64,000 bases of DNA. It comes from Apostichopus japonicus (taxonomy: Eukaryota; Echinodermata; Holothuroidea; Aspidochirotida; Stichopodidae). The stretch spans positions 10,373,501 to 10,437,500 of the forward strand of contig NC_092576.1 in NCBI RefSeq assembly GCF_037975245.1, written 5' to 3'. The position numbers were made by a program, and so were the translations under genes. The notes under the pieces are model-generated. The model saw only the letters and a list, made by a program, of their open reading frames with translations. It searched no databases and was not told the DNA's origin. Positions 30,013 to 64,000 of this stretch are shown in pieces. How positions within the stretch are numbered: the first letter of the stretch is position 1; every line of letters begins with the position of its first letter.

Positions 30013-32137
30013 ATGGAGTCCATTGCCAAACTCAAGAGTGGAATCATTCGATGTGTTCTTACTCTTTATGTTTTATCATTGTTACTGTGTTGCTCTACCG
30101 TCCAAGGTTGCGGGGATTTCACAAACCCTTGCATAATGCCACCTGGTTCAATCTTTAATGATGGCTGTTTCAATTTTTCTGTCTTCAAAAACAACAACTC
30201 GTTTTACAACAATCAGTCTTTTCTGCCGCCTTATCTGCAAACATATCGGAATTCGCTGACAATTTCATGGCATGCAACGCAGAGCCAAACGACATTCTTT
30301 CAATTCAGTAATTTCCTAAGTGGCGTGGTTGGCGGTGAAAGACTAGTCACAGGTGCCATTTTTTATTGGCAAATGTATCGAATGCTCTCGGAATTGAAAT
30401 CATTATGGTTTGAAATGACTGGTTACAAGTCTACTACCATGTACCCGGATCAGACGACGAGAAACAAGATATTCCACGATCTCTTAGGTGAGGCTATATT
30501 TGAAAGTCTGTCCGTTACTAACGACACAAGAATGATGCGTCAAGAGAGAATCATCGAATATTTGAACCGTATAACAGCGTACCTTCTGAGCGACAATGTA
30601 GACATTAACATCACATCAGAGGATGGCTATTCGAGAGTGGCTTTTACATCCCTATTTACGTTTCTTGATCCCGTCAGTATGGATTTGAAATCCGTTCAAT
30701 TGCCGGAATCTGTCAATAAAGATATTATTAAATCTTTCGATTTTCAACAAATAACGACGGCCACGATATGGAATAAAGTAATGGAAATTCATGAGGGCTT
30801 ACGTACTGAAACCTACACGGTACTCAAGGATGACAAATACCAGAATGAATTCATCGACAAGTATTCTGTGTGTCCTTCTGAAATACTTCTCGAGTCGAAT
30901 GTTGACCTTCCAAATCTAAACGGCGTTCATCGCAGTCTAGAAGAAATTGCAAAGTACTGGTATTTTACAACGACCACAGAAGCATCCTTAACAATGCCAA
31001 ATCATCAATTTACTTATCCTTCAGACGTAAATGAGACAAAAGTTGTCTCTACTCAAAGTACAAGATACATGTCCCCGACCGGAAGAAATCCAGATACCCC
31101 GGGAACCTCACAATCTGCCTGCAAGATACAGTTTTGCTCTATTTTACCACTCACTCATTTCATAGACGTCGTAACACTCGAAATCCATATTTCCGCTGAG
31201 TCTATACTGCAGGTTGTTGGAGCTGACCTTTATACATTGCCTGCTGTTATTGTAGGGGTCTTTGAAGAGGGAGTAGAAAAAGTAAAACAACACATGATTG
31301 AACAAAATGTTACCACCGAGAAACTTCTAACCAACATTACTCAAAGTCCAATCGGACTATCACTTTTACGTCAAGTTGAATTTCATCTCGGGTATTTCCA
31401 ATACCTTTTAAAACTCAATAAATGTATCGATACAATTACCAACACATCGGAATCGGCAAATACATATAGCGACGATATCCTCAGTTTCTACAAAGAATGG
31501 AGTTTTGCGTCGTTATTGGTTGCATTCACCTATAAGACGAACCATTCTGATATTTTAAACCAACACCTTAATCTACTGACTGCGTATTATTTTGGTTACG
31601 ACTTAAGTCGTGTTTATGATGTTTCCGCGTTCCATGCACTTAAACCGCATGAGCAGATATCAATCCTAAATCCTTTACAGTGGACTGGGCAGTTACCAAA
31701 AGAGTTTTTACCGTACGTTAATGTTTCGATACTCGATGCTTTTGATATAGAGATACCTATCCAGTTTGACGAAAGTGGTTCTTTATCTCCAGGAGGATTT
31801 TACGAAACATTTTGCGAAGAATTACAGTCTTCGTTAAGTACTGTGTGTAAACTGAACATATATAATTTTTTCGAATCCTATTTGACTACATATTTGAACA
31901 GAATAAAGACTGTTTTGCAAGAAGTTGCTAACTATTGGGCGGTTACATATTATTTTGAAAGTCCTGACTCTGATCCATCGTGTGGCACGTCATTTACGAA
32001 TATATATACCACAATTTCGGATGACAATTATCTTAAAATGACCAAGGGATTTCGAAACACGAAAGCCACTGATGATCCTGGTGTTACATCAGAGGGTAAC
32101 CCCTGGACCAGCTATGGAGCGCCATCTGTTCAATCAG
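30013..32137 (+). CDS. SMP-A: secreted multi-module protein, large first coding exon (708 aa, two modules)
   Basis: The ATG at 30013 opens a signal peptide (hydrophobic residues 11-31, ending CCSTVQG). A splice donor CAG|GTAAGT ends the exon at 32137 in phase 1; the frame beyond it to 32202 is probably intron. Two modules of ~326 residues can be seen. They share EEIAKYW (~310-316) with QEVANYW (~636-642) and each carries a helical first half (FYWQMYRMLSELKSLW at 117-132; HLGYFQYLLKLNKCI at 458-472). Cysteines cluster at the module ends (C370/C375, C600/C612, C657). There are about eleven N-glycosylation sequons and a Thr-rich stretch at 319-323. It is paralogous to the four genes downstream. 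I do not recognise the family. Later exons probably lie beyond 32202. Confidence 0.8.
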
Positions 32138-32623
32138 GTAAGTTTTCACATACCAACAACAATAAGGGAAATCAAGATCACAAGGAAACTGATAGTTTCT
32201 AAAACGAAACATTGAAAGCGTGAAGAAAATAATTTGTTATTGTTTACCCACCGCTCTATAAATAATCCGTTGAAAACACATGATCAATAATAACAAATTC
32301 CTTCTCATTCCATATCGATAATTATTATATGATATCAGAAAATATTTCACATAACTTGCGTCAAGTTTAAATCTAAATTGCTAGCCTAATGAACAAATGC
32401 AACCACCTAAAAGGAAATCAATCATTTTAAATGATGCAAAGATAAACTAGAAAAAAAAAACTATTGCGATATTACTGTAAAATACAAACACAAGGATATC
32501 TGTATCCCAAACTAAGCTGTGCCAAATCCTAGATCGCGTATTCGCAAGTTACCAAGGAAAACAAAAATCATTGTCTTTTCTTTAATTTATCGGTATATAC
32601 TGTCTAGATAAACATGATATCTA

Positions 32624-35600
32624 TACACTCTAAAAAAAAATTACATAGGTTGTGTAAAATTCTACACAACCGCTGTGTAACTAGTGCACCTATCAACCTT
32701 GTGTAGAAACTACACAACTGTTGTGTAAGTGATCATTTGCACAACAGTTGTGTTAAATCTACTCACAGTTGTGTATATCCCAATACACAATACTTGTGTA
32801 AATTGTACACAACCAGTTTGCAATTTCAGCACACCTTGTGTAAAAAAACATACACAAGTTGTGTTAATTCTACACAACCTTTTTACAATTGACTAGTGTA
32901 ATGTACACAACTTTGAGCACATATTACACATACTTTGTCCAGTCTTAACACATTCTGTAGCTATAGTTCATAGCACAGAGCATAAGTATCAATTAAAAAA
33001 TAATATCCAGTATAGACTATACACAGCCTCAATGTTTTGGTATGTATCAACCATGTCCGGAATAAGGTTATCAGTTCTCCTGTTGTGCTTTACATATCTT
33101 TGGATGTTATAAATAGTAGCTTGCTAATTGTGTGGATTCTACAGTAAGACCTGTGTTAAACTTAACTGCAAATTGCTTAACTATAGATGTACAGTAGGAC
33201 ACTATTCACGATACAAAAAAGGATATCAATTTTCTTGGTATATATTTATTTTGGGGAGATCAAAACAAATGCTCTCCATTACAATGAATAAAACCGTAAA
33301 ACATATAATAAAGAGAAGAAAAGTTGATGGAATTCAGCGACTTACGTAACATAACAAGAAATAAAACAGAAATATGTACTTTAATAGATATAAACTATAA
33401 ATCAATGGATTGGTCATTTCCACATCATCATTGAAAGAATAAGTTGTAGGCTATTCTTCCTTTGAAACAAGTAATGGGTTTTACAATATTCACCATCATG
33501 GAAGTCACCCATAACACCATCAGTGCTCCCCCTATGTTCATTGACACATTCTACAAAGCCAGGACTCTCAAAAATAAGTTTGATGACATCTTTGATAGGA
33601 ACAGTAGTAGAAAACACGAGGGGTTGGCACCTGCATCACATTCCCATTAGTTATATCAGTTCTTGGTGCATACCCTAATGTTTTCTGTTTCTCAATAGGT
33701 TGGATAAAATTCTTTGATGCCAGCAGATACTGCAGTTGCTTGTAATCTGTCTCTATGTCATAAAACGGTTTTTGACAAAGTGAAAACTTCTCAAAGAGCT
33801 CAAGAACAGGCTCACTGTTAGTATCAACATTCTGGCTATGCAAAAATGCTTTTGTGTTTTCTTTTAGACTTCCAACAAGGTCATCAAAAGGCTGAGACAC
33901 ATCTTGCACCATAGTTGACACTGAACTTTGAGACACACTACTGAAAGATTTAAGTTTGCAAATTAGCATGAGAGCTCGTTCCTTAACTTGCTGTTCATCA
34001 AGGTGATCCCACTCTTCATTATATGCATCATCATCACTATCTTCATCCATGTCATCAATGCAAATGTCATCTTGCTGTATGTTTCCTATCACAGCCTCCA
34101 CAGGCAAATCATCATCTTGCTCTTGGATATGTTCTCCATTGCAAATATTAGGCATTGTGTGTTGTTTAATGATGTGCCTTTTGAAGCTGTAACTTTTCCA
34201 GAAGCTTTGCTGACATCCATTTTGTTCACACACTGCAATAGATCTAAAATCACTTCCTCTAAGCAAAGAAAAGGCTCTGAAATGTGCAAAGAGCCCCTTT
34301 ATGCCACCATTAACTTCAGTTTGACAGTGGAAACACTCTAGCGCCATTGTTAATACAAAATTATATATTTCTTTGTAGTGTTTACTTGTTTTGCTAACTC
34401 CCTGGCAGTAATAACAGCTTCCTTATCAAAGTTTGTGGGATCAGAGAGAGCTTTATTATTTGTCCTGTTTGATTTTGTTCAAACCCTTACTGCACCTCCA
34501 CTTGAAAAAAAAAATCATCACCGTTTCTTTTCCTTCATTCTTCAGGGCCTCAAAGTTCCTCATAAACGTGATTCTCGGTCCAACTTTTGGGAACGTTCTT
34601 TTATTTCTTCCTTTCCCAGCAACAGGAAATTGTCTATGTCAATCTCATTTTCTAAAATTAAAAGAAAAAGATGATTTACTTGAAGTGTTACAAACAAGAT
34701 ATGGAATGGTCAAAATGACAGTTATTAACTGAACTGGTACTAAAGGTGTGTATGCTGGAACATCCACATGCCCTTCATTACTTTGGAGGTATTCCCTGTT
34801 ACTATCAGCACATAGAAATTGTTTCTTTTGCAAATCTGTGAACTAGCCGTTCATTGTCATTAATGAAAACTTATACCATAACTTCTGCACTTACAGATGG
34901 TCAGAGTGCATGACAAAACTACACAGAGGGATAAGCTTTGATAGGATTTTAGAGGCCCAAACTGAAAACACTCAGCCTTTAATGCAAATGCACACAAGAT
35001 TGCCCTATGCATTCAATATCCCCTTTCCCAACTTAAGGGAAAGCTGTAGTAATTAATCAATGATTTCTAATATATTGAAAAAATAGGTCAAGGCTTCTAG
35101 CCTCTGCTATACAGTATTAACATTAGCATTCTTGGGTTACAATAGCAATTGCCTAATCTATGTGAATTTCTATTGTGATATTTATGCAAACTTCAACAGC
35201 AACATGCCGAAAACATCGGTTCATATAGTTCACTACATAGGCCTAGCCTACACTACGCTCTGCACGCGACTTACGTAATTTAAACTTACTGTAGTCCACA
35301 GCAGATTCATAATGCTCTATGAAAAGTTCTGTTGGAATCCTGCTGGAGTATAATCAAAGTTTGATTTGAATACAGTAACCAATTTAGTGCTGTGCTTGGT
35401 AGTTAAAGGCTAGATGAACAGCTAAACAGCAAAACTGCTGTACATAGTTGGTTGGGATTTTGATTGACTATAGCCTATTGACGAATGTGATCTGATCGCT
35501 GCATTGATGATTGCGCAAGGTGTCAGCCTGCATCGTTGACGCTAGCAGCCACAAAGTCCAATTGCATAACGCAGCTGATAATAGTAAAATATGATCAACT

Positions 35601-41040: not shown

Positions 41041-43572
41041 ATGGGGAACATAACCCTTATGAACTTGATATTACAGGCCATAGTCGCCTATTTTGGATTC
41101 TCACATGGCTTTTCTATTCCGCAAACCATTTTAACAGAACCATCATCTGTTGATCAATCTCTGTGTATATCAAATGAATTTGATTGGTTTCCTTACACTA
41201 TAATTCCGCAAAACATCTACGCGTCTGTCGAGGTTACCGCATTCTTGTCGAACACGAGTGAGATTATTGATACTGAAGATGGCCATGTGGATAATATACA
41301 TCAACAAACGACAATGGAAGACTACAGTGAAATCATCCAGTCATTTCTTCCTACCCAGTTTCATAAGCTGGTAGCCTATGCAAAATTGTTTGACCTTTTC
41401 GGTGAATTTATGATATGGTGTGGAAATGTCGTACGTGAGATTGAATCGAATGGGACGCAGGCGATACCACCTCTCTACTTCAATAGAAGTTACCAAAGTG
41501 ACCAACTCTACGAATATGGTTTTGCCGGTATATTGGCGTATCCAGCATATCGTGGCGGTGACTTTAAGATGGCTGCGATGTATCTACATTTTATTGACGT
41601 TCATATCATCAATATGAACCACATCGTTGCTGTCGAGAATCAAACATACCGCTTTGATGATTTCATATTCAATTTAACACACCTCATAATGTGTGAACAA
41701 CTTGCACCACAGAGTCTTAATGCGAATAACAGTGTGTCTTGTAAACAAACAAATCCTTTGATGTATATCGCCAATCGTTTTGATCAAAGTTTTAATAATC
41801 TTCAGGAAGAATATGCTTTGACAATTTCACCTGGTTTTCGTGACATGTTTTTCTCACTTCTTGAAATGACAGACCCAATGCGGTTTGTTCGATTGATTTC
41901 CTATCTTGTAGCTAAATTTGAAGAAATAAATCCAGTGATCGAAACCTCTGTAACTGCTAATTGCCAAAACCATATCCTAGGTTTTTATTCCACATGTACT
42001 ACATGCCAAGATGTAATAGGTAACGCATCGTCGCTAACAATTGCACCCCTCATTACGACATTGGATGATGAACTTCAGCTTTACTTTCAAGTATTACAAA
42101 ATACAAGTATAGAGTTACAAGAAATGTTCATACTGCTTAACAATTCCATCAACAGCGAAAATATATCAACAACGATAAGCCAAGACACAACTTTGTCGGA
42201 TCACGACAGTAAGTAATGTAAAAGAATTATATGATTAGGACAATCCATTAATCTGTTATTATCCTATTGATATCGGAAATATTAATATCAAGCTTTGAGT
42301 TACTCTCATGTCCTTATATTGCAAGTTTGACATTGCTTTCTTGGCTAAATAGTAACTAATCCTGCAATCAACTTAGATAATTGCAAACAACTTAAGTAAA
42401 ACAGAATATTATACAGCCTTCTGGATAATTGTTTTCTTCATTCCACTAATAAAAGTAAAATATACAAAGAAAGAAAGAAAAAACCGGGAAATATTTATTT
42501 CCAGTTTCACGTTAGATCAATAGCAGTAAATATTATCCATATTAAAACAAAAATGGCAATCCATATAATGCATAATTACATAATTGTATGGACTATTATG
42601 TTCCCATTTAATATGATACATTTGGGAAACCGTCTTTATGGTTGTAATCATAAAAAATAAACGTTGTTAGAAAAATAAGGAAGAAATTTTATTTCCACCT
42701 GCGATCAATGTTAAAACATTAAAACATGTGGATATGTTAATATTACATTGTTCTCTTCTTTGTGGGCAAAGGTTATTTTGACTTGATAATTCACCTTGAA
42801 GCGTTGTTACTACACAATCTCAGGACTTCGTTTATGAAAATGTGCAACTTCATTGATGCTTTGTTAAATGAATTAATATAGCACGTTGCCTACTTTTGTT
42901 TAAACGAAAGAAAATAACATGTTGCATTTTTCCTTTATCTCTCCTGCTGTTCATTTTCCTCTTGATATTATCTTGACTCATTACCCATGTAGGGTTTATG
43001 TTTCATCTTCTGGTTACTAATCATCTTATTACAAAGCACATGATCGTTCGTTCTGTCTATTTCCCGGTTGCCTCTTCAACTGTTATTCCTAGTTCACGTT
43101 TCAGGCTCCTTCTAATGAGGTTAACCTAGTATTTGAACATCAATCCCTGTACATTTTAACGCAAAATGATTTTTTTACTTTAAAGATGAAAATATCTGCA
43201 AAAAGAAGCCATTAGGTGTCAAAGTTTGAAATAAACAATAATGACAGTGAACACAACAAAAGCATATGAAAGGTTTCGTTCTTCATTTTGAATAGTTTTC
43301 TTTTTTCTTCTTCATCAATTTAGCAACTACAGGCCAAGCCTCAAGCACGTTCCAAAGTTCTTCTGCAACGACCTCGCGGAGTACCCCCGTTGTGTCGACA
43401 ACAGTATCGCCGCCAAGAACAATCAGAACATCAACTATACAACCGTCAACAATGGCACCAAGTTCATCCCTTGGAATGTCATCTGAAAATATAAATAAGG
43501 GGACATTAACAGATGGAACAGAATCAACATCAGCATCTGTATACGACGAACCATTTACCACAGAATTCTACG
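41041..43572 (+). CDS. SMP-B: secreted single-module protein with a Ser/Thr/Pro-rich second exon
   Basis: Exon 1 (41041-42208) opens with a signal peptide (hydrophobic residues 7-24) and ends at ACA|GTAAGT in phase 1 (389 aa). It holds one module: C42, then LFDLFGEFMIWCGNVVREIE at ~116-135, then C310-, C321- and C324-type cysteines (FYSTCTTCQDV), and a C-terminal amphipathic stretch. About ten N-glycosylation sequons are present. Exon 2 (43324-43572) follows CATCAATTTAG, is phase 1-1, and encodes 83 residues made mostly of Ser, Thr and Pro (e.g. STPVVSTTVSPPRTIRTSTI), a mucin-like stalk. It ends TACG|GTAATG. A last exon may start at 44213 (after TTGCTTCTAG) and stop after about 18 residues. 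The module relates it to its neighbours; the function is unknown. Confidence 0.75.
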
Positions 43573-43610: not shown

Positions 43611-44124
<514 letters not shown>

Positions 44125-47173: not shown

Positions 47174-50100
47174 ATGACTAAATCAACTTTCCTAGTTCTC
47201 TGGATTGTATGTTTTTCATTTGGTATAGTTGTATCCTTCTCAAGCATACCCAGACTGCCCAGTTTTGCAAGTACCCCACTGCCAGACGACCTGGAATGTT
47301 TCCAAATATCAGAACGGCTCGAAGATGATGTTGATATACCATTGCGTCTATCGGAATACATAAATGTTTCAATAATACCTTCGGATTTCTTCAACATTAC
47401 TCACAAAGGAAACAAAGAAACTAAAGAGTTTGTGAAGGGATTCATGTATGAGCTTGCATATGAAACTTTCTTTGAATATATCGTATGGTTGGACAATCTT
47501 CTCACTGTCGTCCGAGAAATCTTGCTTGGAGAAGATGCAGCAGATTATAGGACATTTGATAATTCACTGTATAGACGGAATGTTCTAAAATCCTCATATT
47601 TTCGAGTAGCTACAATTCTAGATGGCAGCAGCAAGATAGGAGGAAAAGAAAAGGCGCTTGTAGATGCGGGTTTAGCCCAGCTTCCTTTCGCTGTTTATCA
47701 GTCATTGTACAATACGGACGAAGAACAACTCACGCTTGGGAATGACGACCTGAATCGAACAGTCTATGAGAAAATAACTTCAATTCTTTCTCTCTTTGAA
47801 AATTCTACCTATGGAAATGGATATGCACCATCCTTGTTATTCAATATAGATATTATCGGAGTCAACTTGGATGCTGTACTTCAATTATCACAATGGAAAC
47901 ATCTCGATCTCTCTATTATTTGGACAGGTGGACTTAGAAATGTCTGCATAAATACTGGCGGAGGAATGGCATCTGGGGACATATGGCCGAGAGAAGATAT
48001 AAATTATCACATTGATAAAATATCAAATAATATAACCGCGGAGGCAATTAAACTGAGGTATTTTATTGAGAGCATACTTATAGCAGTTGCTGATGGTAAT
48101 TCTAACTGTACTGACTTACAATGTTGGACGAGGAATCCAACAACGGGCTTACTATGGCCTGCATGGAATAGCGCCACTCTCAATTCATATAGGAGCTTTG
48201 TTATTCACTATTTGAATGATGGGTCCTTGTATCCTGTCTTCCCAATTTCAACTCCTAATTGGGTGAGGGAATACATATCCGTAAGGAGTAATCATTCTGT
48301 GAATCTGCTGGATTTAGATGGATTACTAACTTTGCAGTTGCTATTTCCAGTTTATGAGGCGACATTCCAGTTTGTTAGTTGGCTTGAAAATGTCCAAGTC
48401 TACACCGGAGAATTTATAACGGGACACGATCAGTTCCACCTGCACAAGATGTTGACAGAAAGCAGATTCTACCAAGAATTTATGGAGATTGGATACTATC
48501 TGATTCAATATTCAGATAATTCAAACTTCTTGATACTGATCCATCGTCTTGCTAACGATTTATTTGTCGGTAGATATCAGCAATTTATTCGAAATTCCTC
48601 CTTCATAAATAAAGACAGAGATGAAACCTTGAATAGCACTCTTGGAATATCGTCCGAAGGTATTTTTGAAGAGTTATATCAACTTCTTACAGAATCATTA
48701 ACATACGACGAAGCATCATCCCTCGACCTTAACTCTATCAATTTTACAGATTTACTTAGCAATGACACATTAAACAATGTGATAAACCTGGTGAGTGGCA
48801 TAGTCGAACAACAGGGTAATACATTGAACATAAACGTAAGCCAGAGCATCCGTGCTGAATTCAAAGAAATTCAATACGAGTTTGCAATAACAAGTGTTAT
48901 TCCCTCCGAAATCAAGTTCGTATTAGATAACTTCCAATACAACTTAGAACAAGTCTTTCTAAATGTCTCATTAGAATGGTCATCTCGGCTACAGAATATC
49001 AAACATCAGTTACGCTATTCCCAACAGTGTTCTGAAAAAGTACCAATGTCGAAAGATATTTTCAAAAATCTGGCAAACGTCAGTGAAAGTCTATGTTGGA
49101 ACTCATGGTATGCTGATGTTACAAAAGTTCCTTTCCTGCATGGGAGCTTCTCAACGAAGATTACGGAATACTATGTTAGTTTACCATCTCAAAATGTATC
49201 ATCACTCCAACATGAAAAACGTATATTCGAAATATTTGCATACCAAATACTTTTTACTGACCTAATGAAGTACAAGTATGATCTCGAAGAGTTGAAATCT
49301 TCTCTTCATAATTCCACTTTACCTGTTTCATTAGACGATCTACTTTGCGTGTTCCAGAATAACTTTCTATCGACAACATACCAACTGGCAAATTCCTTCA
49401 AACACGAACAAGATTTTAGAGAATTTTCCCAAACGGTTGGTCTATTAATGATACAGGATGAGTTCAACGATGAACAGATAGCAAACTTTACCGCCCAAAC
49501 TTTATTCCAAAGGTTTGATCTAAATGTGACCGACGTGTTGATGATGAAGGAGAACCGGACTATCGGTATGATCGAAGAACTGTTTGAAAATGCGATGGGA
49601 ATGATACAATCCGCAATCGACGGCTGTAGCATTGTACTGGATTATTCCATAACAGACCAGGAGCAAGATGGACTCCTACAGAGGACTACTTGTTATATAC
49701 ATTTGCAAGGATTGAATGAAACGTTCGGTAGTATTGAGCAAATCTTGCAAGATTTCAGTCAACAGTTGACAGAATCTTCGGAAAATTTGCTAAGAGCTAT
49801 CTTTGCGCTAGAGTCATCAACTTCGGCAGATCTCTTGAGCGACAGTATTAATTACGGCTTAACTACTACAACTGACAGTGTAGTAAGTGTACCGATGTTT
49901 CCTTCATCAACTGGTAAGTCAATACAAAATATAATAAATAAATAAACGTGAACAACAAAGTTAAAAGTGACGTAAACTAGTTGTTTAACTTTATATGGAG
50001 TTTACTATATTTTTGTGTCTGCGTGCACATCGTGAAATACCATTGGAGCCTTTATCACTCATGTCAGTTCCATCTTAGAATGGAAGCGTATTCTCATATC

Positions 50101-53100
50101 TGTAACACCAATGCGCGGTGAAGTTGTTAACCACAGTACTTGCTTAATGTCAATCTATACCACGTTAATTTGCTTCCTCAGTAAAATGTGTCCATGGGAC
50201 AAAGAGGAATGGATAAAATGTTTAAAATGATTGAATCACAGTCAACATTCAAGTGGTAGTGGTGGATAACTAAACAATCATCGTTGATAAATAAATGGTA
50301 TCTGTAATGGTAACTTTAATAGAAAACTTGATCTGACTTAACGAGAACTATGACAAATTAAAAAACAATTATCATACACGTTGTAGGATTTTTTTTTTAA
50401 ATTTTCGACGGGTTTAAATTGCCTCAACTCCTTTCTTTCTTGTCGTTGGCTCATGCAACAAGAAGAACATGAAATCAAAATAGTTGGTGGAGACGTGGGA
50501 GGATGGGTGGGTGGGGGGGGGGGTGAAAGGTGCGGAAGTCAACTTTAGTGAATTTCATGAAATGCATGATCCAATGATCTCAAATGACCTTTGCAATACC
50601 AGAATCATCTCGTACTAGAAATGCCGTTATGAACTATACACTGATCAAACTTCCATGACGGATCATCAGTACATTTTAATCGCTGTTGACACAATTATTC
50701 TTGACATTCCTGCCCCGTTACCACAGTATTTTAATTGCACGTGAGAAAATTACAACAGCAACATTGGATTGAAACACCCATCCTTTATTATAAATGTCTC
50801 CTCAGTGACCTTAAGGTAAAATTATGGATTACATGGTTGATGCTCCGTTCTAAATTGGTGCATTTCATCTGCAAAATGTTAATACAATTTAAACGCAGAA
50901 CGGACGCCAAAGTGCCAGAGATGTGGCTTAAAGCTGTGTAACGTTTCACATATGTGTATTCCAAGCCCATAGTAATACGACACAGTCAAGACATGCCATG
51001 TCAGTTTTCATCGGAAACATTACAAATGCCGTTTAATGAACATTTTAGGTACAATGATTAAGAAAAGAGTGAATTGCAAAACACATTAAGACACTAGCGA
51101 CGGTTCCGGAATCTTTCCTATATGATTATCCTTCCGTTTAATCGTTTTATTATTTATTACCTCATAGACTTTTATATTGTAATCCCTTCTTTCTTGCAGT
51201 GTGAACAGTGAAAGAAAAACACATAACATGAGACTATCTACCAGGCTTTTCACCTGTTTTGCCGTTATTCTATTAAATATTTTAATTCGAATGGATTAAA
51301 TGAAGATGGTCCACAAACTGTGAAATTTAAACGCTCATTAAACATATGGAAGTTACATATTTCTCAACAGAGAATCTTCATTCACGACGGATGACCCTAA
51401 AGACTTAAAACAAGAAACATAATGTTTACCGTGTATAATATATTCAATGCCAATTGTTATGATGCTTGGTTACATCTTTACTTTCGTCTACAGTACATTA
51501 TGTAGGAACTCGAAGATTTACGGCAATCATTTAGACGATATAACATTGTTGCAACAATAGTTTATTCAATTTTATATGAAAGTTAGAAGGTATGGGATTC
51601 GACCATAACGCGATCTATTCTCTAAGTGATTTCAACTTGGATAGAGCGTCAGTTCCTCTAAGTTTTATGCATTCTCCTAGGCACATTTTTTTGCTTAATG
51701 TTTGGGATAATTTATGAATTTTGTAAATAGAGTTTTGGTATGTCAGGGATGTGTTATTTCCTTTGACAAATTGATACAATATGAATACTTTATGTCAAAA
51801 CTATCATTGAATACACGAATTTGTAGGACCTGCGCATAAACAATCAAGATGTATGTATTTGTCACATTAAATAATATAATTGATTCGTTAATGTTTGGAA
51901 AGTTAACGCTGTTTGTATGGAACCAACCCAAATAAACTGTATTTCTTCTATATCTCGATTCAGCTTCAACTATGAGCACAGAAAGTAGTTCTGCATTTAC
52001 GGAAGAAAAGACAACTCTCAACTTGGAAAGTTTATCAACCACAGGTAAGTTACAATACAGTCACATTCATTAAACTATACGACGTCTCCATATCTTTTTC
52101 AAGATTGCTATAGTATTATATGACCTGTGATGTTTATAAACATGGATATTTCTTAAACGTAGATGTGCACAAGCAAAAAAACTGTAATTTCACCGATAAG
52201 TTAACATAATATAAATACAAAATAAAAAGTTTGTTCTCTACATCTAGGTTCAGCTTCAACAATGAGCACAGAAAGTAGTTCTGCATTTACGGAAGAAAAG
52301 ACAACTCGCAAGTCAACCACAGGTAAGGTACTATACAATCACATTCATCAAACTATATACGAGGAATGGTGACGTCCTAATTCATATGGGCTCATGCATG
52401 CTTGTGATACATTGAGCTTTGTCACAGTTTGACCGCATCCACTGACCAATGAGTTAATGAATAATATCAGTGTTACTGCTCATTGATAAATAGTGTGGCA
52501 ATACAAAAAAAATAAATAGCAATGACAACCATGACGTACATATATGGTAAAGATGACGACACCGACGACGATGTTGACAATGACGATAACGACGAAGAAT
52601 ATAGAGACGATGAGGACGACGTAATAGGTGACGACGAATACAACGGTGGGGACGACTATGACGAAATTGGACGATGACGGTGCCGATGAATATGATAACG
52701 ATGAGGACGCTGATGTCATGATGATGGCGACCACAACGAGTCGATGTTGGCAAAGGGGACAATCTGTTTAACCCACCACTACATCTCTTGTCCATCATTG
52801 ACCCATGCATTGTCTTAGCAGAAGCGGGAACACTGACACTGTAATAATCAATAATGTTAAGACTAAAGACATAGCAGATAAGAACATCGTTGCTCTCAAT
52901 ATCATCCTTAGGTAATATACAGTAGTAATTGGAAAATATAGCAGTTTGTTTAGTCTTCTGTGGTCTTTTTTTTAGCCGCTAAGTCAACATATTTTTTTTC
53001 AAGAAATGCCATAGTATTCTCTGACCTGTGATGATTATAAACATTGATATATCTGAAACGTAATTGCACACAAGAAAAAAAAATGTAATTTCACCGATAA

Positions 53101-54161
53101 GTTAACATAATATAAATACAAAATAAAAGGTTTGTTCTCTACATCTAGATTCAGCTTCAACAATGAGCACAGAAAGTAGTTCTGCATTTACGGAAGAAAA
53201 GACAACTCGCAAGTCAACCACAGGTAAGTTACTATACAGTCACATTCATCAAACTATATACGAGGAATGGTGACGTCCTAATTCATATGGGCTCATGCAT
53301 GCTTGTGATACATTGAGCTTTGTCACAGTTTGACCGCATTCACTGAACAATGAGTTAATGAATAATATCAGCGTTTCTGATAAATAGTGTGTACAATACA
53401 AAATATAAATAGCGATGACGATCATGACGTACATATATGGTAAAGATGACGACACCGACGACGATATTGACGATAACGATGGCGATAACGACGAAGACTA
53501 TGAAGACGACGAGGACGATGTGGTAGGTGACAAAGAATGCAACGGTGGGGACGACTATGACAAAAATGGACGATGACGATGACGGTGTCGATGACCATGA
53601 TGACAATGACGTTTATGACGACGACGTCGTCAATGATGATGGCAGACATAACGAGTCGATGATGGCGAAGACCACAATCTACTCAACCCACCGCTACATC
53701 TCTAGTACATCATTAATCCAGTCAATGTCATTACATATAGCTGGGAGCACTGACGCTGTAACTATAATTAATGATAAGACTCAAAACATAGCAGGTTAGT
53801 ACGAGGTTGCTCTTACTATCATCGTCAGGTAATATGCAGTAGTCATTGGAAAATATAGTATTAGTTTGAAACATCTTTGGTCTTTATTTATGCCTTTAGT
53901 CGATAATATCCTCTTTATCATATTTCATAGTGTTCTGTGACACTGTGATATTTATTAATATTTATATTTCCGAGAAAACAATTTTGCACAAGAAAAAAGA
54001 CTGTATTTCCCCCCATTAATTATAATAATATGAATACAAAACATGAACAAAACATTGTGTTCTTGTATATCTAGATTCAGTTTCAACAATGAGCACAGAA
54101 AGTAGCTCTGCATTTACGGAAGAAAAGACAACTATCAAGTTGGAAAGTTTATCAACCACAG
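47174..54161 (+). CDS. SMP-C: secreted three-module protein with four duplicated Ser/Thr-rich exons
   Basis: Exon 1 is 47174-49913 (913 aa, phase 1 at ACTG|GTAAGT). I chose the ATG at 47174 because it starts the signal peptide (FLVLWIVCFSFGIVVSF). Three modules repeat at ~297 residues: YETFFEYIVWLDNLLTVVRE (96-115), YEATFQFVSWLENVQVYTGE (394-413) and AYQILFTDLMKYKYDLEELK (689-708). Cys-Trp hinges occur at CTDLQCW (312-318) and CWNSWY (641-646). There are about twenty N-glycosylation sequons. Four phase 1-1 exons follow: 51964-52044, 52254-52322, 53155-53223, 54081-54161 (27, 23, 23, 27 aa), each reading (A/V)STMSTESSSAFTEEKTT and ending STTG, a stalk rich in Ser and Thr. The 3' end is not found. 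The family is not recognised; a secreted or surface glycoprotein is inferred. Confidence 0.8.
49914..51963. other. first intron of SMP-C
   Basis: About 2 kb, A/T-rich, with a G tract near 50510. No further exon or transposon is recognised. Confidence 0.5.
52540..52735. repeat. (GAC/GAT)n-rich intronic tract, copy 1
   Basis: Imperfect GAy triplets such as GACGACACCGACGACGATG. It belongs to the duplicated intron; related tracts lie at 53432-53645 and 54375-54570. Confidence 0.8.
53432..53645. repeat. (GAC/GAT)n-rich intronic tract, copy 2
   Basis: As in copy 1, with an extra run GATGACGATGACGGTGTCG. ORFs through it are low-complexity artefacts. Confidence 0.8.
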
Positions 54162-54374
54162 GTAGGTTACCATACAATCACATTCATCAAACCACATACG
54201 AGGAATGGTGACGTCCTAATTCGTTTGGGCTCACGTATGCTTGTGAAAAATTTAGCTTGCCACATTTCGATCGCATTCACTAAACAATGTGTTTATGAAT
54301 ATTATCAGCGTTTCTCCTCATTGATACTTTGTTTGTGGCAATACAAGATAGAAATAACGATTACAATCATAACG

Positions 54375-54570
54375 TACATATATGGATAACATGACGACAC
54401 CGACGACGATGTTGACGATGGCGATAACGACGAAGACTATGAGGACGATGTTTCAGGTGACAAAGAATGCAGCGGTGGATACGATGGCGGTGTCGATGAC
54501 CATGATAACGATGACGATTATGACGACGATGATGTCAATGATGACGGCGACCACAACGAGTCGATGATGG
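54375..54570. repeat. (GAC/GAT)n-rich intronic tract, copy 3
   Basis: As in copies 1 and 2, and ending in CAACGAGTCGATGATGG. Confidence 0.8.
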
Positions 54571-54614
54571 AGACGGCGATAATCCACTCATCGCACCATT
54601 ATATATAGGTTTAC

Positions 54615-54876
54615 CAGTGGCGGAGCGTCCATATTTATTGACATTTGTCACATTTTGTTGGTGTAATTTGGCGATGACACCTATTTATTCTTCGTTTATC
54701 TTCAAATTAGCCAGGCCCGGAAAGGGTCATTTCCGGCGGTCTAGGGAGTATCTTTACTCAAAAAAAAATCTATACGCTACGCGCCAACCAGTGGTGGCGC
54801 TCAACTTAGTGTCGAAAGTGCCCCTACAGAGCATTCTCGCCCCCCCCCCCCACCAATACCCCAAGCTCCGCCACTG
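54615..54876 (+). mobile_element. hAT-type MITE, 262 bp (CAGTGGCGGAGC family)
   Basis: The ends CAGTGGCGGAGC and GCTCCGCCACTG are perfect inverted repeats. AGGTTTAC at 54607-54614 and 54877-54884 is a perfect 8-bp target-site duplication. It is related to 15535-15937. The sister intron copies at ~52785 and ~53700 lack it and act as natural empty sites. Confidence 0.9.
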
Positions 54877-54884
54877 AGGTTTAC

Positions 54885-55569
54885 CTATTGTCCATCATTA
54901 ACCCATTCATTGTCATTACAAGGACGGGTACATTGACACTACTATTACTAATTAGACTAAAGACGCAGCAGATAAGTACTACGTTGCTCTTACTTTCATC
55001 GTCAGGTAAAATACAGTAGTCATTGGAAAATATGGTGTTTGGTTTGGTCTTATTTTAGTCGCTAGGTCGTCACAAATGTGCACCAGAATAACGACTGTAA
55101 TGTCACCGTTTAGTTAGAATAACATATTTATAAAGCACGTCGAGATATATGGATGCATAAAACGGTCTACATAGATACAATAAATAACAAACTAAACGCT
55201 ACATTTGCTCTTTATTTTAATACGGAAGCGTATTGCTGCCACAAATTTCTTTCGAAAATAACGAAAGATATTCGAAACTACGATTTCTATTCATAATTAC
55301 ACAAGGATTGTTCTTTGTTGTTTATGGCAAGATAACCCTTCCGGATTAATTCATAAGCAACATTAACACATATGCATTAGGTGACCTTTTCAGCTGTCCT
55401 TGTTTCAATTGCACGGATTAGGGTTAGCAAGCGGGTTAAATGACTGTGGTCCACACAAAGCGGAGACTATGGACACTACAAAATGTGGCTCGTTTCGTAA
55501 TGAAGATTGTCATGTTTCTTTGTTTGAATAATGGGTTCTTTGAGCAATCAAGTAGAACACAGTCGACGT
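54885..55569. other. end of the duplicated unit and intergenic sequence
   Basis: To about 55030 this continues the third duplicated intron copy. Beyond it I see no exon with convincing signals. Confidence 0.4.
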
Positions 55570-56408: not shown

Positions 56409-57374
56409 ATGTGCAACATGGAGATATTTGTTTTAGTTTTCTATCTTTTGATGGGATTATTGGTTTCTCTGTTTGCAAGAGAAACACATGACTTACATTT
56501 CTTCCCTAACTTTGCTCCTGTGCGGCGAAATATGAGTGTCTCTTGCTTCCAGGTATTCGAAAATATTGAAGACAACTACTTTCCTCAAACTGTGCTAGAT
56601 TTCTTATCTTCACAAGGAATACAAAATCTTGATAAAAGGAGTAGCCCGTTGTCCTCTGACCATGCGAAATCTTTTCTGAAGATGATCGTTTTTGAACGCG
56701 TTTATGAAATCACCTTTGAATATCGGTTTTGGTTAGAGAAGTTGCTTAACAGTTTCAAACAGGTTGATTCTGATGGTAGAAGTGACGAAGAAATACGGGA
56801 ATTTAACGCATCGTATTTTAACGATATTTTTAAAAGAGCCTCGTACCTAGCGTTGAAAAGCGATATGAAAATCGTTCATGGTCAAAACTGGCAGGAATTT
56901 CCTACAAATTTATCTGTCGCGATTTATAGTTCGTTATTTAATGAAACGATGGAAAGCATACAAGAGGATGTTAAAAACATTTCGGTAGAAATATTAAAAT
57001 CATTGGGTGAAAGTCAAGATTACACTCTAGTTTTTGATTTAGTATTCTTAAATATTAACAATGTTACAGATGAAATCTTCATATTGTTTCAGGATAGTGA
57101 AGTTGGAACACTTGATAACGTTAAAGGAGAAGGCCCAATATGTCACAAGAACCAGAATAATGAACACTTTAAAGAAATGAATGATAGGCTATCAACCATT
57201 TATTCTATCGTAAATGAAACTGTGTTCTTTGTCACATATAATTTATTGGCCCTCAGTTTTGCAAATGATGACGAGGACGCACTACGTGAGTACATATTTA
57301 AGTATAAAATAATAGATATATATATAACAATTTTTTTTTTTAAATTACCAGCTGTAAACTCATTGGAGGAATAA
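56409..57374 (+). CDS. SMP-D: short secreted single-module paralogue
   Basis: ATG at 56409 (or 56418, MEIFVLV) with a signal peptide to about residue 23. One module is present: VSCFQVFENIED at 44-55, then YEITFEYRFWLEKLLNSFKQ at 99-118. The module stops after NETVFFVTYNLLALSFANDD, just before the Cys-Trp hinge seen in SMP-C and SMP-E. A donor CTAC|GTGAGT ends the exon at 57285 in phase 1 (292 aa). A 66-bp intron to an acceptor at 57351 would add PVNSLEE and a stop at 57374. The 66 bp are in frame and stop-free, so read-through gives the same end. An alternative phase-compatible exon is at 58621-58823. It has about seven N-glycosylation sequons. It may be a truncated or shortened member of the array. 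Confidence 0.7.
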   Translation: MCNMEIFVLVFYLLMGLLVSLFARETHDLHFFPNFAPVRRNMSVSCFQVFENIEDNYFPQTVLDFLSSQGIQNLDKRSSPLSSDHAKSFLKMIVFERVYEITFEYRFWLEKLLNSFKQVDSDGRSDEEIREFNASYFNDIFKRASYLALKSDMKIVHGQNWQEFPTNLSVAIYSSLFNETMESIQEDVKNISVEILKSLGESQDYTLVFDLVFLNINNVTDEIFILFQDSEVGTLDNVKGEGPICHKNQNNEHFKEMNDRLSTIYSIVNETVFFVTYNLLALSFANDDEDALREYIFKYKIIDIYITIFFFKLPAVNSLEE

Positions 57375-57777: not shown

Positions 57778-57810
57778 CATATCTATATATATATATATAT
57801 ACATACATAT

Positions 57811-57842
<32 letters not shown>
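57717..57842. repeat. (TA)n microsatellite, left of the palindrome
   Basis: TA repeats with CATACATA and TATCTA interruptions, abutting the palindrome. Confidence 0.92.
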
Positions 57843-57845
<3 letters not shown>

Positions 57846-58154
57846 GGTATAAATAATGTACACTCGTACAAAGTTTGCGCTATTACTCGAGTTTCATGCT
57901 TCTTCGCAATCGTCAGATAGCTAATGATCAGGTTGTCTGTCTGTGGCGTGGTGCTGTTATTTTTTCCGTTTTTTTCTATGTCGACACTTTGACAAAAGCT
58001 TTTGTCAAAGTGTCGACATAGAAAAAAACGGAAAAAATAACAGCACCACGCCACAGACAGACAACCTGATCATTAGCTATCTGACGATTGCGAAGAAGCA
58101 TGAAACTCGAGTAATAGCGCAAACTTTGTACGAGTGTACATTATTTATACCTAT
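57843..58154. repeat. perfect 312-bp palindrome (156-bp arms, no spacer)
   Basis: The sequence from ATAGGTATAAATAATG at 57843 is identical to the reverse complement of the strand ending at 58154. The symmetry axis lies between 57998 and 57999, in ACAAAAGCTTTTGT. Both strands therefore encode the same peptide from the centre outward. I found no mismatch by eye. Confidence 0.92.
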
Positions 58155-58208
58155 CCAGCTCTATACCCAGGTATATTGAGCACTCTTCACCTGGAATTAA
58201 TGCCATCT

Positions 58209-58211
<3 letters not shown>

Positions 58212-58265
<54 letters not shown>

Positions 58266-58266
58266 T
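58212..58266. repeat. (TA)n microsatellite, right of the palindrome
   Basis: About 50 bp of TA beginning 58 bp after the palindrome. Confidence 0.92.
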
Positions 58267-58823: not shown

Positions 58824-58959
58824 CCGAAAGGTTTCTGAATCACACATATCACAATTGCCTCCGGTACATTTTGACTTTCAAATTTCTTAGATGAAATTTT
58901 ATAACCAGAAACAACAACCCATCCACACAGAGATTACATGAACTATACCTGAAATCTTG

Positions 58960-59170
58960 AAGTGTTGTACCACAGTAACAATTAGATTGTGTTGATAAGT
59001 ATGATCAATCGGTAGCATATAACATTAGGTTTACAGTAAGAACTGAGGATATGTGTTATCCTAAGAAATACATCAATCCTAATAGCACATGCTACTGATT
59101 TATAGCGCGATCCAGTTTTTACTTTTGTACAAACTTTAAGTTTTACAGTATAGTTGCTATATTCTCTTTG
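58960..59170. mobile_element. diverged copy of the 22868-23174 fold-back MITE
   Basis: GTTGTACCACAGTAACAATT, ACAGTAAGAACTGAGGATAT and AGCGCGATCCAGTTTTTAC match that element in the same order. The hairpin is less perfect here. Confidence 0.65.
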
Positions 59171-61228
59171 CATGTCCGGTCTCTCAGGATATAAATACCT
59201 CCCCTCGTGAACCTCCTTGACAGCGGTTGGACAATCTGCTGTTGTTCTAATCGTGTGATTGACAGGTCTATTAATTGCTACTATCCCTGGTATGATAACA
59301 TTTTCAACGTAATGCTAAGGCTTTCAGACTCTTACAAATCTTTAGTCTATTTACAAGGTATAACTATTATTTCGGAGTGATGTACTTAGCCCACAAACGT
59401 TATAAATACCTACATGTTGGATTAGAACGACTGAAAAATCAAATCTGTAGCACCACAATAAAAACGAAAGGTAGTTGTTAGCACATCCCTGCTTGTATAA
59501 CCCTAAATTATAGCCTGTATATACATCAGACTAGATCATTTGACGTTGTTGTTTTTGGATTGCTATATATATTGATATCATGAATTCAACTTTATTAGAA
59601 TATCCCACATATGTATGGTGTCTTTTGAAAGCCTCTCTTTATCTCTGATACTCTATCGAAAGCAAACGAAACATTCTCGATGGTGATATATTGTATGTTT
59701 TTGTGTGATTATTTGGCTTTGTATATGATGCCTTTGCATCCCCACCCCCTCCCCCCCCGCTCCCGGCTTGTATGCGCAATAATTCAACAAACCTACGCGC
59801 ATTGGTGAAAGTTCAAAAGCATTGGAAGTCAGCATGTCTCAAAGTCTGAAACCGTTTAAACACACTTAAAAAATATCAAATTGGGAGTTCATTTCGTATG
59901 TGGATTGCCCTTGATGAGGCCTCGAACGCTATTGAAGTGCTGAGGTTAGAATATCTTTGGACGTAAGATTCTGAAAGCCGTGCCATCTTGGTTGACGTTA
60001 ATGCATGGTATGTAGGTATCCGTTGGTTAGTATATGGACAGCATTGAAAAAGCAGACCTCAAATTTAACTTGACGTCAAAACAGGTCAAAGTATGTCCAC
60101 CTTGTTAATATGATAAATGCATGAGTAAAGCTACTGAGAACTTCAGTCGTCGTATGTAGACCCCCATTGTATATCCCTGTTAAAATTGGTGGTGTTCAAA
60201 AGTCATTTTAAGTCGCCTATTAAGCACCATTGATGTGAAAGTTAAGCTTGGATAAATTCGTAATCGATTTGTGGTCCCTCTTATTACTGCAAGAACCTTT
60301 TCAGCGAATAATCGTGAAGTCAGTCAACACTTGCGCACATAGTTACTGCTAATGTTCCGTTTTTAAATTGGATTTCAAGTTGATATTACGAATTACGAAA
60401 GCCATTCATTCTATATGTAGCACAATAGGCGTAAGGAAAGTAATGAGGCTGCCGGTAAAGAAACGTTTAAAATTATACAAGTAGCAACATTATGAAGCAT
60501 TTGTATGATGTCATGGTTACTTATATTTTATTGTTTACGCTTCTCACAAAAATTCAGCAGCCAAGGTAAATCTTTGCTGTCAAAATCATTTCTCATGAGA
60601 TTAAAATTTGTTTAACCTAGAAATCAGAGCACAATCGTGAACGTATCAAAGCCAAACAAGAGAGTTTTCTCATGCACTCACTACAATGTTTTGGCTTCGT
60701 TTACCAAGTTGCAAATGATGAAAACAGCCACTTTAATTCAGTCAAGAGGATTCAATGTTAAGAACTTTCGATCTTATGAATGCTCTTTTAAAATATATAG
60801 ATATACAGTATTCACGAAAGAGCTCTTTTCATATTGTATATTCTTAAATTTATTTTGAGCGTGATCGATCCGCCTGCTGCTATCATATTCAAACAACTTT
60901 TATTGAGACAGGATAGCTTAACGATTCACTCGTGTGTGTATCCGACTAAACAAACAGGAGGGAAAAAAATAAAAAGAAACTGATTTAATTGGACAAGGCA
61001 ATAGTGATCGATAAATAAAGTACAGACTTTATAATCATCATAAATAAATAGATCAAGCTTTTAATAATAATATGAAAGACGAAAATATCAAATATAGGCA
61101 GCTCGAAGTGTATCATATAGACATTCTATCTCAAAGCGTGATACATTTCGGACGCTTTATCATCTTGGGTAATTTTCTACTGGAGCAGAATATTTTGAGT
61201 ATTCAGATTAAAGTGACGTTGTGCCGCT
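59171..61228. other. intergenic region upstream of SMP-E
   Basis: About 2 kb with no convincing exon. There is a C tract near 59745 and scattered A/T runs. The last few hundred bases should hold the SMP-E promoter and 5' UTR. Confidence 0.4.
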
Positions 61229-64000
61229 ATGGCAAACGGGGGGATATGTCACATTGTCATCTTTATGATGTTCATATGGTATGTTGGATGTATTAATGGG
61301 CAAGGAGTGAGGATCCCAGCGTTCTCATCACAGGTTACAGATATTTCAGTCGATTGTTTTCACGTATCAGCCAATATCGAGGATGAAGGATTCGCACCAA
61401 ATGTTTTAGAGTTTCTGAATCAGTCTGATGGAACAATTAGCCGCCCATACTTCTACCAAGAAAATTCTCTCGCCCTCATGGAGATGATAGCAACAGGAAA
61501 ACTATACCAAGTGTTTTCAGAGTTTCTGTACTGGCTAGACAATCTTTATGTATTTACCGTAGCGTTGACTAAAGAAAAAGCTTCGTCAGAGTACTTTCAT
61601 TTCAGTAGCGAAGAATTTGATAGATTGTTCAAAATCGCAGCCATTCATAAAGTCGCTCAGGTAACATTTGAATTCGATAGTGTACAAGAGGTGGAACAAG
61701 ATACATTCCTAGAAGACTTCGCAAGTTTGCTTTTCATATCATTCACAGACGAGACTATCAAATTTTTCAATGTTGACGACATGATCAAAGTCCAATACCA
61801 GAAATTAGAACGTATTCTCAGGCTTCGCTCGTCTGAACACCATCAAATTGATGAAAAAGTCATGTCAAATTTCGCAGTCGATTTCCAGTTTCTTTTAGAC
61901 AGTATTGCATCTGTATTTGAAACGACAGAATACATCAGCGAAGGACCTAGGGATGTAGGAACATGGTTTAACGTACCCTATTATGTGGAAACATCTAGGG
62001 AAGACTCCACGGGGTGGTTTGTTTGTGAAAAGGAATCTACTTGGTATCAGATTGGGTATTCTAATGACATATTGGCCGATGCTACCGATACTATTGGAAA
62101 TATATCGAGATCCATTGCTTCATACATACACAGAGAATTCGGTACCGGATACTTAGCCAAAAAAGGGAATCGACCTTGCAATGATCATGGATGCTGGAAA
62201 CGGGATACTGCAACAAACATCCCCATACCAAGTTTAACCTTGAAAGATAATGAGCGTGAAGAATGTTTCAATACGTATTTTACCTCCGACAGCAAACCAA
62301 TATTATCTCTCGGTGCACCAGAATGGCTGCTAAATATTACGTTCAGTAATATCTACACAGACACCAACCCAGAGATTTGGAAAAACGTATTCGTCCTCCA
62401 GAATATTTACAACGCATATGAAAAGGCATTTTACTTCATCGTTATGCTTGAGAACATGAAGATGTACCTTGCAAAAATAAAAGAGGAGGTGCAAATTGGG
62501 ACTACGCAACGATTAAATGGTCATTTCTCTTGGGCATATTTCATGGAAGAGGGCTTTCAGTTATTACAAACGTCTTACGACGAGTTTCCTGGTAATGATA
62601 TTGAGAACATAGCCGTACATGTCATACAGAGTTTGTTGAATATTACAAGTGATGATCGGACAGCTTTTCCTAACGTGTTGAGTATAATCGAGTGGCAGAT
62701 GAATGACCTCAACATCCAGGTTTCGGAGGAAGTGGAACTTGCAAGCATCTTTGGAGGTACTGGTCAAACCGCCATGGAATCATTTGTCCCTCTGTTTAGT
62801 GTAATCGGAACGCTAAGGGAACAAGTAAATGAGTACGAATGGCTAATATTTGAGGATGCATATGATGTATCAACTGTCAAAAATTCTGACTCAGCAGGAC
62901 AAAGCATTTGCTTGGAAATCCAGAGAAAAGAATTCAACCAATTACTTATCAATATAGAAGATGTATTAGAAACTTTCGAAGTCAACCTACTTGAGGCTTC
63001 CAATGCCATATATGATGCTATATCTAGTCAGATACGCGAGATATGGAGACAGAGACACTTTGCTGATTCATGTTCTGACAACGAATGCTTACCCCTGGAT
63101 ACCTGGTTCGTTACACCTTTCAACCCACCTGTACCGCTTAAAGAGCAATCATGTTCCTATCCGTGGTTTGCGGGCACGAAAGGAGAACCGGTCGTAAACG
63201 AGTATGTAGGGGAGAAGACCACCGAGTACATCTCGTCTCTGTTATTGGATCTTGACACTGAACATATCTTAAACTCCGAACTGCCAGCACACGAAAGTGA
63301 AACCAAAATCTTAAAAGCAGTTTCTTTTGAAAGGATGTTCGTACAACTCGGGCAGTATGTCATCTGGTATAGAATCGTTGAAGCTCAACTTACCCCATTT
63401 AGCAACGTGGTAGCCTATCAAAGCCTCCCGAGAAACAACGGGCAGCTTGAAGCGACCATATCTTACTTCAAAAGAATGTATAAAATTGTCAGTTATCAAG
63501 GTTTGGTGTATTTGGAACAATCAAACGTCGGACAAATCGTCAGCCCAGATGATTTTTTGTTCCAAGTGGGTGTTCGGTTGTTCGAAGATGTATTTATGGG
63601 CACCGACACCGTATTTCGGCAAGTTGATGGTCTTGGTGAACAACTGCCAGACAAGTATACATTTAAGATTGACGATTTTCAAATAGAAAGCGACGAAGTA
63701 AATGACGAGACCGTGCTGTCTCATGTGGGACAATTGTTGCAGAATGTGACGACTGCTATAAATAGTCACTTGCTTTCATCAAGGATTTCGTTCAGAAGGA
63801 ATCAAGTTTACAATACAAATAACAGAGATAGCAGTACAGGAATGAACGAACTTGAAGTTTGTCATTCAAACGCGACGTCTTTAGGCGAGGCAATTCTTAC
63901 CCTATATGAAAATCTTGATAACTCTATAAACGAGTTAAGCAATTCCTTGAAAGTTTTATACCACGAAATGTTTCGGTTCTTGCCAGAAGGTGATGTAACT
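61229..64000 (+). CDS. SMP-E: secreted protein with at least three modules (924 codons, open to the window edge)
   Basis: The ATG at 61229 opens a 924-codon frame with no stop before the window ends. The signal peptide is residues 1-24 (HIVIFMMFIWYVGCING). Three modules repeat at ~305 residues. Their first cysteine is at C43 (VDCFHVSANIED), C346 (EECFNTYF) and C642 (QSCSYPWF). Their signature helix is YQVFSEFLYWLDNLYVFTVA (93-112), NAYEKAFYFIVMLENMKMYL (395-414) and MFVQLGQYVIWYRIVEAQL (703-721). The Cys hinges are CNDHGCWKRDTATNIPIPSL (317-336) and CSDNECLPLDTW (615-626). About six N-glycosylation sequons are present. C43 and the CFxVxxNIED context match SMP-D (CFQVFENIED), showing common descent. 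The exon end and any mucin-like exons lie beyond the window. Confidence 0.85.
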   Translation, partial: MANGGICHIVIFMMFIWYVGCINGQGVRIPAFSSQVTDISVDCFHVSANIEDEGFAPNVLEFLNQSDGTISRPYFYQENSLALMEMIATGKLYQVFSEFLYWLDNLYVFTVALTKEKASSEYFHFSSEEFDRLFKIAAIHKVAQVTFEFDSVQEVEQDTFLEDFASLLFISFTDETIKFFNVDDMIKVQYQKLERILRLRSSEHHQIDEKVMSNFAVDFQFLLDSIASVFETTEYISEGPRDVGTWFNVPYYVETSREDSTGWFVCEKESTWYQIGYSNDILADATDTIGNISRSIASYIHREFGTGYLAKKGNRPCNDHGCWKRDTATNIPIPSLTLKDNEREECFNTYFTSDSKPILSLGAPEWLLNITFSNIYTDTNPEIWKNVFVLQNIYNAYEKAFYFIVMLENMKMYLAKIKEEVQIGTTQRLNGHFSWAYFMEEGFQLLQTSYDEFPGNDIENIAVHVIQSLLNITSDDRTAFPNVLSIIEWQMNDLNIQVSEEVELASIFGGTGQTAMESFVPLFSVIGTLREQVNEYEWLIFEDAYDVSTVKNSDSAGQSICLEIQRKEFNQLLINIEDVLETFEVNLLEASNAIYDAISSQIREIWRQRHFADSCSDNECLPLDTWFVTPFNPPVPLKEQSCSYPWFAGTKGEPVVNEYVGEKTTEYISSLLLDLDTEHILNSELPAHESETKILKAVSFERMFVQLGQYVIWYRIVEAQLTPFSNVVAYQSLPRNNGQLEATISYFKRMYKIVSYQGLVYLEQSNVGQIVSPDDFLFQVGVRLFEDVFMGTDTVFRQVDGLGEQLPDKYTFKIDDFQIESDEVNDETVLSHVGQLLQNVTTAINSHLLSSRISFRRNQVYNTNNRDSSTGMNELEVCHSNATSLGEAILTLYENLDNSINELSNSLKVLYHEMFRFLPEGDVT

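What the first reader, a model, noticed from the sequence alone, without database searches (positions are those of the whole stretch)
30013..64000. A tandem array of five paralogous secreted multi-module proteins of no recognised family
Five same-strand genes (30013, 41041, 47174, 56409, 61229) each start with one huge intronless coding exon. All have a signal peptide and many N-glycosylation sequons. The four with a visible exon end (A-D) all have a phase-1 donor. Shared text such as WLDN/WLEN/WLEK helices and CFxVxxNIED links them. I recognise no described domain. Size variation (292, 389, 708, 913 and at least 924 aa) and tandem layout suggest a fast-evolving, lineage-specific family, as seen for surface, immune, adhesive or gamete proteins. 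That role is inference only.
Basis: partly seen in the sequence, partly recalled or inferred. Interest (0 to 1): 0.88.

Follow-up and report, generated by a model that had tools for sequence, protein, structure and literature searches.

The report
Egg-jelly-type receptor with multiple front exons
In a sea cucumber, five tandem exons that each code for a signal peptide and a fast-changing outer region lie in front of one receptor gene of the kind that lets sea urchin sperm sense egg jelly, so the animal may be able to put different heads on one receptor.

Summary
The five exons are real (708, 389, 913, 292 and about 975 codons; longest frame in 20 simulated windows 207). They come from a sea cucumber close to or identical with Apostichopus japonicus. 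C, D and E are clear paralogues; B is marginal; A is linked only by layout, an internal repeat and cysteine spacing. The module matches no Pfam, NCBIfam or PDB entry. Two AlphaFold jobs failed (pLDDT 31 and 44), so 'helical' is a guess.

The main result lies outside the window. About 11 kb past E, same strand, begin exons of a REJ-GPS-single-TM receptor (REJ PF02010, 2.6e-51). A convergent sister locus has head exon F (135631-134725), then REJ (1.8e-46), GPS and TM, with 14 conserved segments in the same order. Intron phase fits (clear for E, weak splice score for F), and a scan of both gaps found no other signal-peptide exon. So the exons are most likely N-terminal exons of a receptor of the egg-jelly/polycystin-1 family, not a standalone secreted family.

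No REJ exons were found between A and E, and D's nearest relative is F, not E. Protocadherin-like alternative first exons remain the boldest open reading; transcripts must decide.

The parts
30013..32137 (+). A: large first exon, signal peptide, two repeated modules, phase-1 donor TCAG|GTAAGT
41041..42208 (+). B: large first exon, signal peptide, one module, phase-1 donor
   Evidence: marginal similarity to E and C
43324..43572 (+). B: candidate second exon, Ser/Thr/Pro-rich (47%), enters in phase 1; either ends at a weak phase-1 donor (score 1.8) or runs to a stop at 43616
47174..49913 (+). C: large first exon, signal peptide, up to three modules, phase-1 donor ACTG|GTAAGT
   Evidence: 97% identical to Logan ORF P0006
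51964..52044 (+). C: candidate Ser/Thr-rich mini-exon 1 (phase 1 in and out; acceptor 5.7, donor 8.7)
   Evidence: carried in a tandem DNA repeat of about 910 bp
52254..52322 (+). C: candidate mini-exon 2 (acceptor 2.9, donor 8.3)
53155..53223 (+). C: candidate mini-exon 3 (acceptor 2.8, donor 8.7)
54081..54161 (+). C: candidate mini-exon 4 (acceptor 1.1, donor 7.0)
56409..57285 (+). D: first exon, signal peptide, one module, phase-1 donor CTAC|GTGAGT; nearest relative is F of the sister locus (window-scale 135631-134725, - strand)
61229..64000 (+). E: first exon, signal peptide, up to three modules; open to 64240 beyond the window, then about 11 kb to REJ exons at 75213
   Evidence: 96% identical to BSL78_01952 of A. 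japonicus over the best local alignment, 32% of the query

Best explanation
The E exon is the N-terminal part of a membrane receptor: signal peptide, up to three modules (probably helical), a short spacer, REJ domain, GPS/GAIN-like region, one transmembrane helix and a tail of about 13 residues. A convergent sister gene (F) has the same order with one module. A-D are further copies of this first exon in front of the same body. The donors of A-D are phase 1, E's candidates are too, and the first REJ exon takes a phase-1 intron, so any of A-E could be joined in frame to the shared REJ-GPS-TM exons. My best guess is that A-D are alternative first exons, each with its own promoter, giving one receptor several heads, with phase-1 Ser/Thr-rich mini-exons as optional stalk pieces. 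SHOWN by sequence: large exons, phases, homology among C, D, E and F, domain calls, the same order of segments in two loci, faster divergence of the head. INFERRED: splicing of E to REJ (about 0.8), splicing of A-D to the same body (about 0.45), cleavage at GPS, and a role in gamete or other self/other recognition (about 0.5, by analogy with sea urchin REJ and ascidian s-Themis).
Against: No transcript was seen. E's candidate donors are weak (3.2-3.8), F's too (2.7), and F's first REJ acceptor scores 0.8. No good donor was found after E's GPS exon (best phase-1 score -0.8), unlike F's (4.6). GPS of the + locus is below Pfam's cut-off (15.6 v 22.5 bits). The TM exons are candidates by hydropathy; weak donors in E's (1.9, 1.5) leave room for further exons. 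The A. japonicus gene model that covers E is not joined to a REJ domain (P0007), though it is plainly partial. B's second exon can end in a stop. A would have to skip 43 kb. The upstream regions of A-F share no motif beyond shuffles. The gap scan cannot see a signal exon with a poorer donor.
Confidence: 0.5

Rival explanations
1. E belongs to the REJ receptor, but A-D are independent genes for secreted, REJ-less decoys or partners with Ser/Thr-rich tails, each with its own short terminal exon.
For: No REJ exon (tblastn E<=0.01) and no convincing TM exon entered in phase 1 lies between A and E. B's second exon runs to a stop at 43616. C has four candidate Ser/Thr-rich mini-exons of its own.
Against: No terminal exon was recognised for A, C or D. 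D's closest relative F is the only intact head detected in front of its REJ body.
Confidence: 0.35
2. All five are standalone secreted proteins of a new family; closeness to two REJ genes is an accident.
For: Donors of E and F and F's acceptor are weak; no RNA seen.
Against: The order module exon then REJ body recurs in a sister locus on the other strand, the phases fit, and a scan found no other signal-peptide exon in either gap.
Confidence: 0.12
3. Part of the array is decaying duplicates: some of A-D are unexpressed relics of first-exon duplication.
For: G, a seventh copy on the - strand near 137765-136973, has stops and frame breaks, so copies do die.
Against: A-D are open over 292 to 913 codons with intact donors and hydrophobic starts; C's ORF is open and 97% identical in another sequence set.
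Confidence: 0.15

Closest known systems
Sea urchin receptor for egg jelly, SpREJ1 (also SpREJ8, SpREJ9)
   Same: REJ domain, GPS, single transmembrane helix; large echinoderm proteins (PMC1934368: abstract, passages and section 6 read)
   Different: SpREJ1 has one EGF and C-type lectin domains; no such domain was found here. The head is an unrecognised module coded by one giant exon, and several such exons stand in tandem. SpREJ8 and 9 have partial REJ domains
Ascidian s-Themis (sperm-side self-sterility factor)
   Same: Hypervariable region, REJ and GPS in one protein (PMC8849226, passages read)
   Different: s-Themis has LH2 and 5 or 11 TM helices and a v-Themis gene in its first intron; here one TM candidate, and no partner gene was looked for by profile
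Vertebrate clustered protocadherins (recalled; one search gave only search listings)
   Same: Tandem large first exons, each with signal peptide and ectodomain, upstream of one set of shared exons
   Different: There the shared exons code only for the cytoplasmic tail; here they would code for REJ, GPS and TM. Joint transcripts are unproved and no common promoter motif was found

Membership tests
REJ / PKD1 family | REJ domain (defines the family, PMC1934368) | tested here: met
   PF02010 2.6e-51 (E locus) and 1.8e-46 (F locus); these exons lie outside the window
REJ / PKD1 family | GPS before the first TM | tested here: met
   F locus 22.8 bits v cut-off 22.5. E locus alone would fail (15.6 bits), but its segment is colinear, with CxCKFW...CKTxHLTSF
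REJ / PKD1 family | 1-11 TM segments | tested here: met
   One hydrophobic exon with a stop soon after in each locus; by hydropathy only, and the join from the + locus GPS exon has no good donor
REJ / PKD1 family | PLAT/LH2 after TM1 (five of ten SpREJ) | tested here: inconclusive
   The TM exon reaches a stop about 13 residues after the helix in both loci and no clearly conserved exon follows GPS; no profile scan beyond GPS was run
REJ / PKD1 family | Lectin or EGF N-terminal domains as in SpREJ1 | tested here: not met
   No significant Pfam match in A-E
REJ / PKD1 family | Sperm expression and egg-jelly binding (SpREJ1) | not testable with these tools
   No expression or binding data
Clustered alternative-first-exon gene | Several tandem first exons with signal peptide and one donor phase | tested here: met
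   E's donor is one of five weak phase-1 candidates
Clustered alternative-first-exon gene | One downstream set of shared exons in matching phase | tested here: met
Clustered alternative-first-exon gene | Transcripts joining each first exon to the shared exons | not testable with these tools
   No RNA data
Clustered alternative-first-exon gene | Shared promoter element | tested here: inconclusive
   A simple test of 500 bp upstream of A-F: 10-mers with up to one mismatch, best in 5 of 6, reached by 1 of 5 shuffles

The most novel reading that the evidence does not exclude
A protocadherin-like receptor locus of the egg-jelly (REJ) family: five interchangeable first exons, each a signal peptide plus a fast-evolving head of a fold not yet described, are joined one at a time to one REJ-GPS-TM body, so that each sperm or other cell may display its own choice of head for self/other recognition.
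Probability: 0.3. Interest if true: 0.92.

Novelty: new variant of a known kind. Interest (0 to 1): 0.68.

Why it matters
SpREJ1 triggers the sea urchin acrosome reaction, and an ascidian relative is the sperm side of self-sterility, yet how such receptors gain variable binding heads is open. A holothurian REJ receptor with an unrecognised head and a rank of spare heads in front of it makes this directly testable by long-read RNA sequencing of testis. It also shows why orphan exons should be read with 100 kb of context before being called a new family.

Tried and rejected
Known families for the module: nothing significant in Pfam or NCBIfam for A-E (best E 0.11 and 0.022, below the curated cut-offs) or in PDB for C, A, B and the C/E/D profile (best E 0.037). 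D and E were not searched in PDB on their own. Wider homologues: three searches of 5.8 billion proteins, with C, E and a C/E/D profile, found only P0006 and P0007; two of them scored only the best 8000 or so candidates, none used A or B, and heads this divergent can be missed, so 'lineage-specific' is not proved. Fold: AlphaFold on C with 5 rows (pLDDT 31) and on module D with 8 rows (pLDDT 44) was too poor to search; both models are mostly helix at useless confidence. No fold search was run. Last exons for A-D: splice-site scans and cross-comparison gave only B exon 2 and the four C mini-exons. Phase-1 exons with a TM-like stretch after A (e.g. 34104, 36289, 37869) were judged chance by eye. 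Shared promoter motif: none. Genome-wide count of REJ genes and module exons: not obtained. Literature: searches listed no paper whose title or abstract start describes sea cucumber REJ genes with such heads; the only paper with both 'receptor for egg jelly' and 'sea cucumber' is a sea urchin genome paper, not opened (PMC10855541); BSL78_01952 is in no held paper; the library lacks most subscription journals. PMC13228809 (outline with abstract, passages) treats THAP and SRCR families. PMC5638244 was seen in a listing only.

The F-locus model has a likely error: its exon 108781-108471 takes in an intron-like hydrophobic stretch. The conserved segments were chosen because they match between loci, so exons unique to one locus would be missed.

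Full report
SOURCE. Gene E is 96% identical over its best local alignment (32% of the query) to BSL78_01952, a hypothetical protein of the sea cucumber Apostichopus japonicus, on a contig of 1.2 Mb. Gene C is 97% identical over its whole length to an ORF in Logan data without a named organism. The window is bases 10373501-10437500 of contig C16 of an unnamed 672 Mb assembly in 35 contigs. Whether it is A. japonicus itself or a close relative is not settled. Below, positions beyond 64000 are counted on in window scale (x = C16 position minus 10373500).

THE FIVE EXONS. The phase-1 donors of A-D are there. E is open past the window to 64240; its last part is a fourfold repeat of 15 residues, and five weak candidate phase-1 donors (scores 3.2-3.8) lie in or just before it. 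C, D and E are related beyond doubt; B is marginal; A shows no link beyond shuffles except a weak one to D (4 of 300), though it repeats itself internally and has cysteines spaced as in C and E. In an alignment of eight modules from B, C, D and E, seven rows share a late cysteine, followed by a heptad-like stretch (by eye). Some pairs of modules pass the shuffle test and some do not. Sequons are enriched in B, C and D only. That the modules are helical rests on AlphaFold models of useless confidence and on the look of the sequence.

WHAT FOLLOWS THE EXONS. Downstream of C lie four candidate Ser/Thr-rich mini-exons with phase 1 at both ends, good donors (7.0-8.7) and mostly modest acceptors (1.1-5.7), carried by a DNA repeat of about 910 bp. 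Downstream of B lies one Ser/Thr/Pro-rich exon, which may be internal or terminal. Nothing convincing was found for A and D.

THE RECEPTOR BODY. I read 224 kb (-59999 to 164000). Downstream of E, + strand, 14 modelled exons from 75213 to about 91899 code for a protein with a REJ domain (PF02010, 2.6e-51) and a GPS-like segment (15.6 bits, below the cut-off of 22.5); a candidate exon at 94174 codes for one transmembrane helix and stops about 13 residues later. On the - strand a second locus runs towards it: module exon F at 135631-134725, then 14 matching segments from 119625 to 106243 (REJ 1.8e-46, GPS 1.3e-4), then a TM candidate at 105035. The two modelled bodies are 44.8% identical over 924 residues, and tblastn at E<=0.01 finds them nowhere else in these 224 kb.

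WHY THE HEADS BELONG TO THE BODY. First, the order module exon then REJ body is present in both loci, on opposite strands. Second, the first REJ exon of the + locus is entered in phase 1 at a strong acceptor (11.8), and the best acceptor of the - locus is phase 1 too, though poor (0.8); the heads' donors or donor candidates are phase 1. Third, neither gap between head and body (10,970 and 15,095 bp) holds another ORF with a hydrophobic start and a phase-1 donor of score 2.5 or more; antisense controls gave 1 and 0 (a stricter scan gave 0 in all four stretches). Weak points: the donors of E (3.2-3.8) and F (2.7) are poor, no good donor follows E's GPS exon, and no transcript was seen.

KNOWN OR NEW. 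By its REJ domain the E/F gene is a member of the REJ/PKD1 family, apparently in the single-TM form; absence of PLAT is likely but was not tested by profile. What is new is the head module, which matches nothing searched, and the rank of first exons. I call it a new variant of a known kind. It would be more if transcripts show exon choice.

Noticed in passing
57832-58165: Spacer-less inverted repeat of 2 x 167 nt, 97% complementary, 3' of D; a natural palindrome or an assembly fold-back.
   Followed up: no
51943-55135: Tandem DNA repeat of about 910 bp, three to four copies, with four copies of a Ser/Thr-rich phase-1 mini-exon: stalk length could vary by unequal exchange.
   Followed up: partly
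131-2180, + strand: EGF-like exons of a neighbouring gene (label by eye, not profile-tested).
   Followed up: no
window-scale 137765-136973, - strand: Seventh head copy G with stops and frame breaks, upstream of F.
   Followed up: partly
window-scale 138314-147243: Large inverted duplication: several ORFs recur on the opposite strand, among them one that looks like a C2H2 zinc-finger protein (by eye).
   Followed up: no
window-scale 85217-88133, - strand: LINE-type endonuclease/reverse transcriptase ORFs in an intron of the + strand REJ body (by eye); similar ORFs near -19085 to -17648.
   Followed up: no
20469-20931: Long (TCACCA)n microsatellite giving a spurious 218-codon ORF.
   Followed up: no
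33568-34347, - strand: 259-codon ORF with a C2H2-like start, in the gap after A; resembles transposon-borne zinc-finger proteins (by eye).
   Followed up: no
3808-4254, - strand: ORF resembling a GIY-YIG endonuclease tail of a retroelement (by eye).
   Followed up: no
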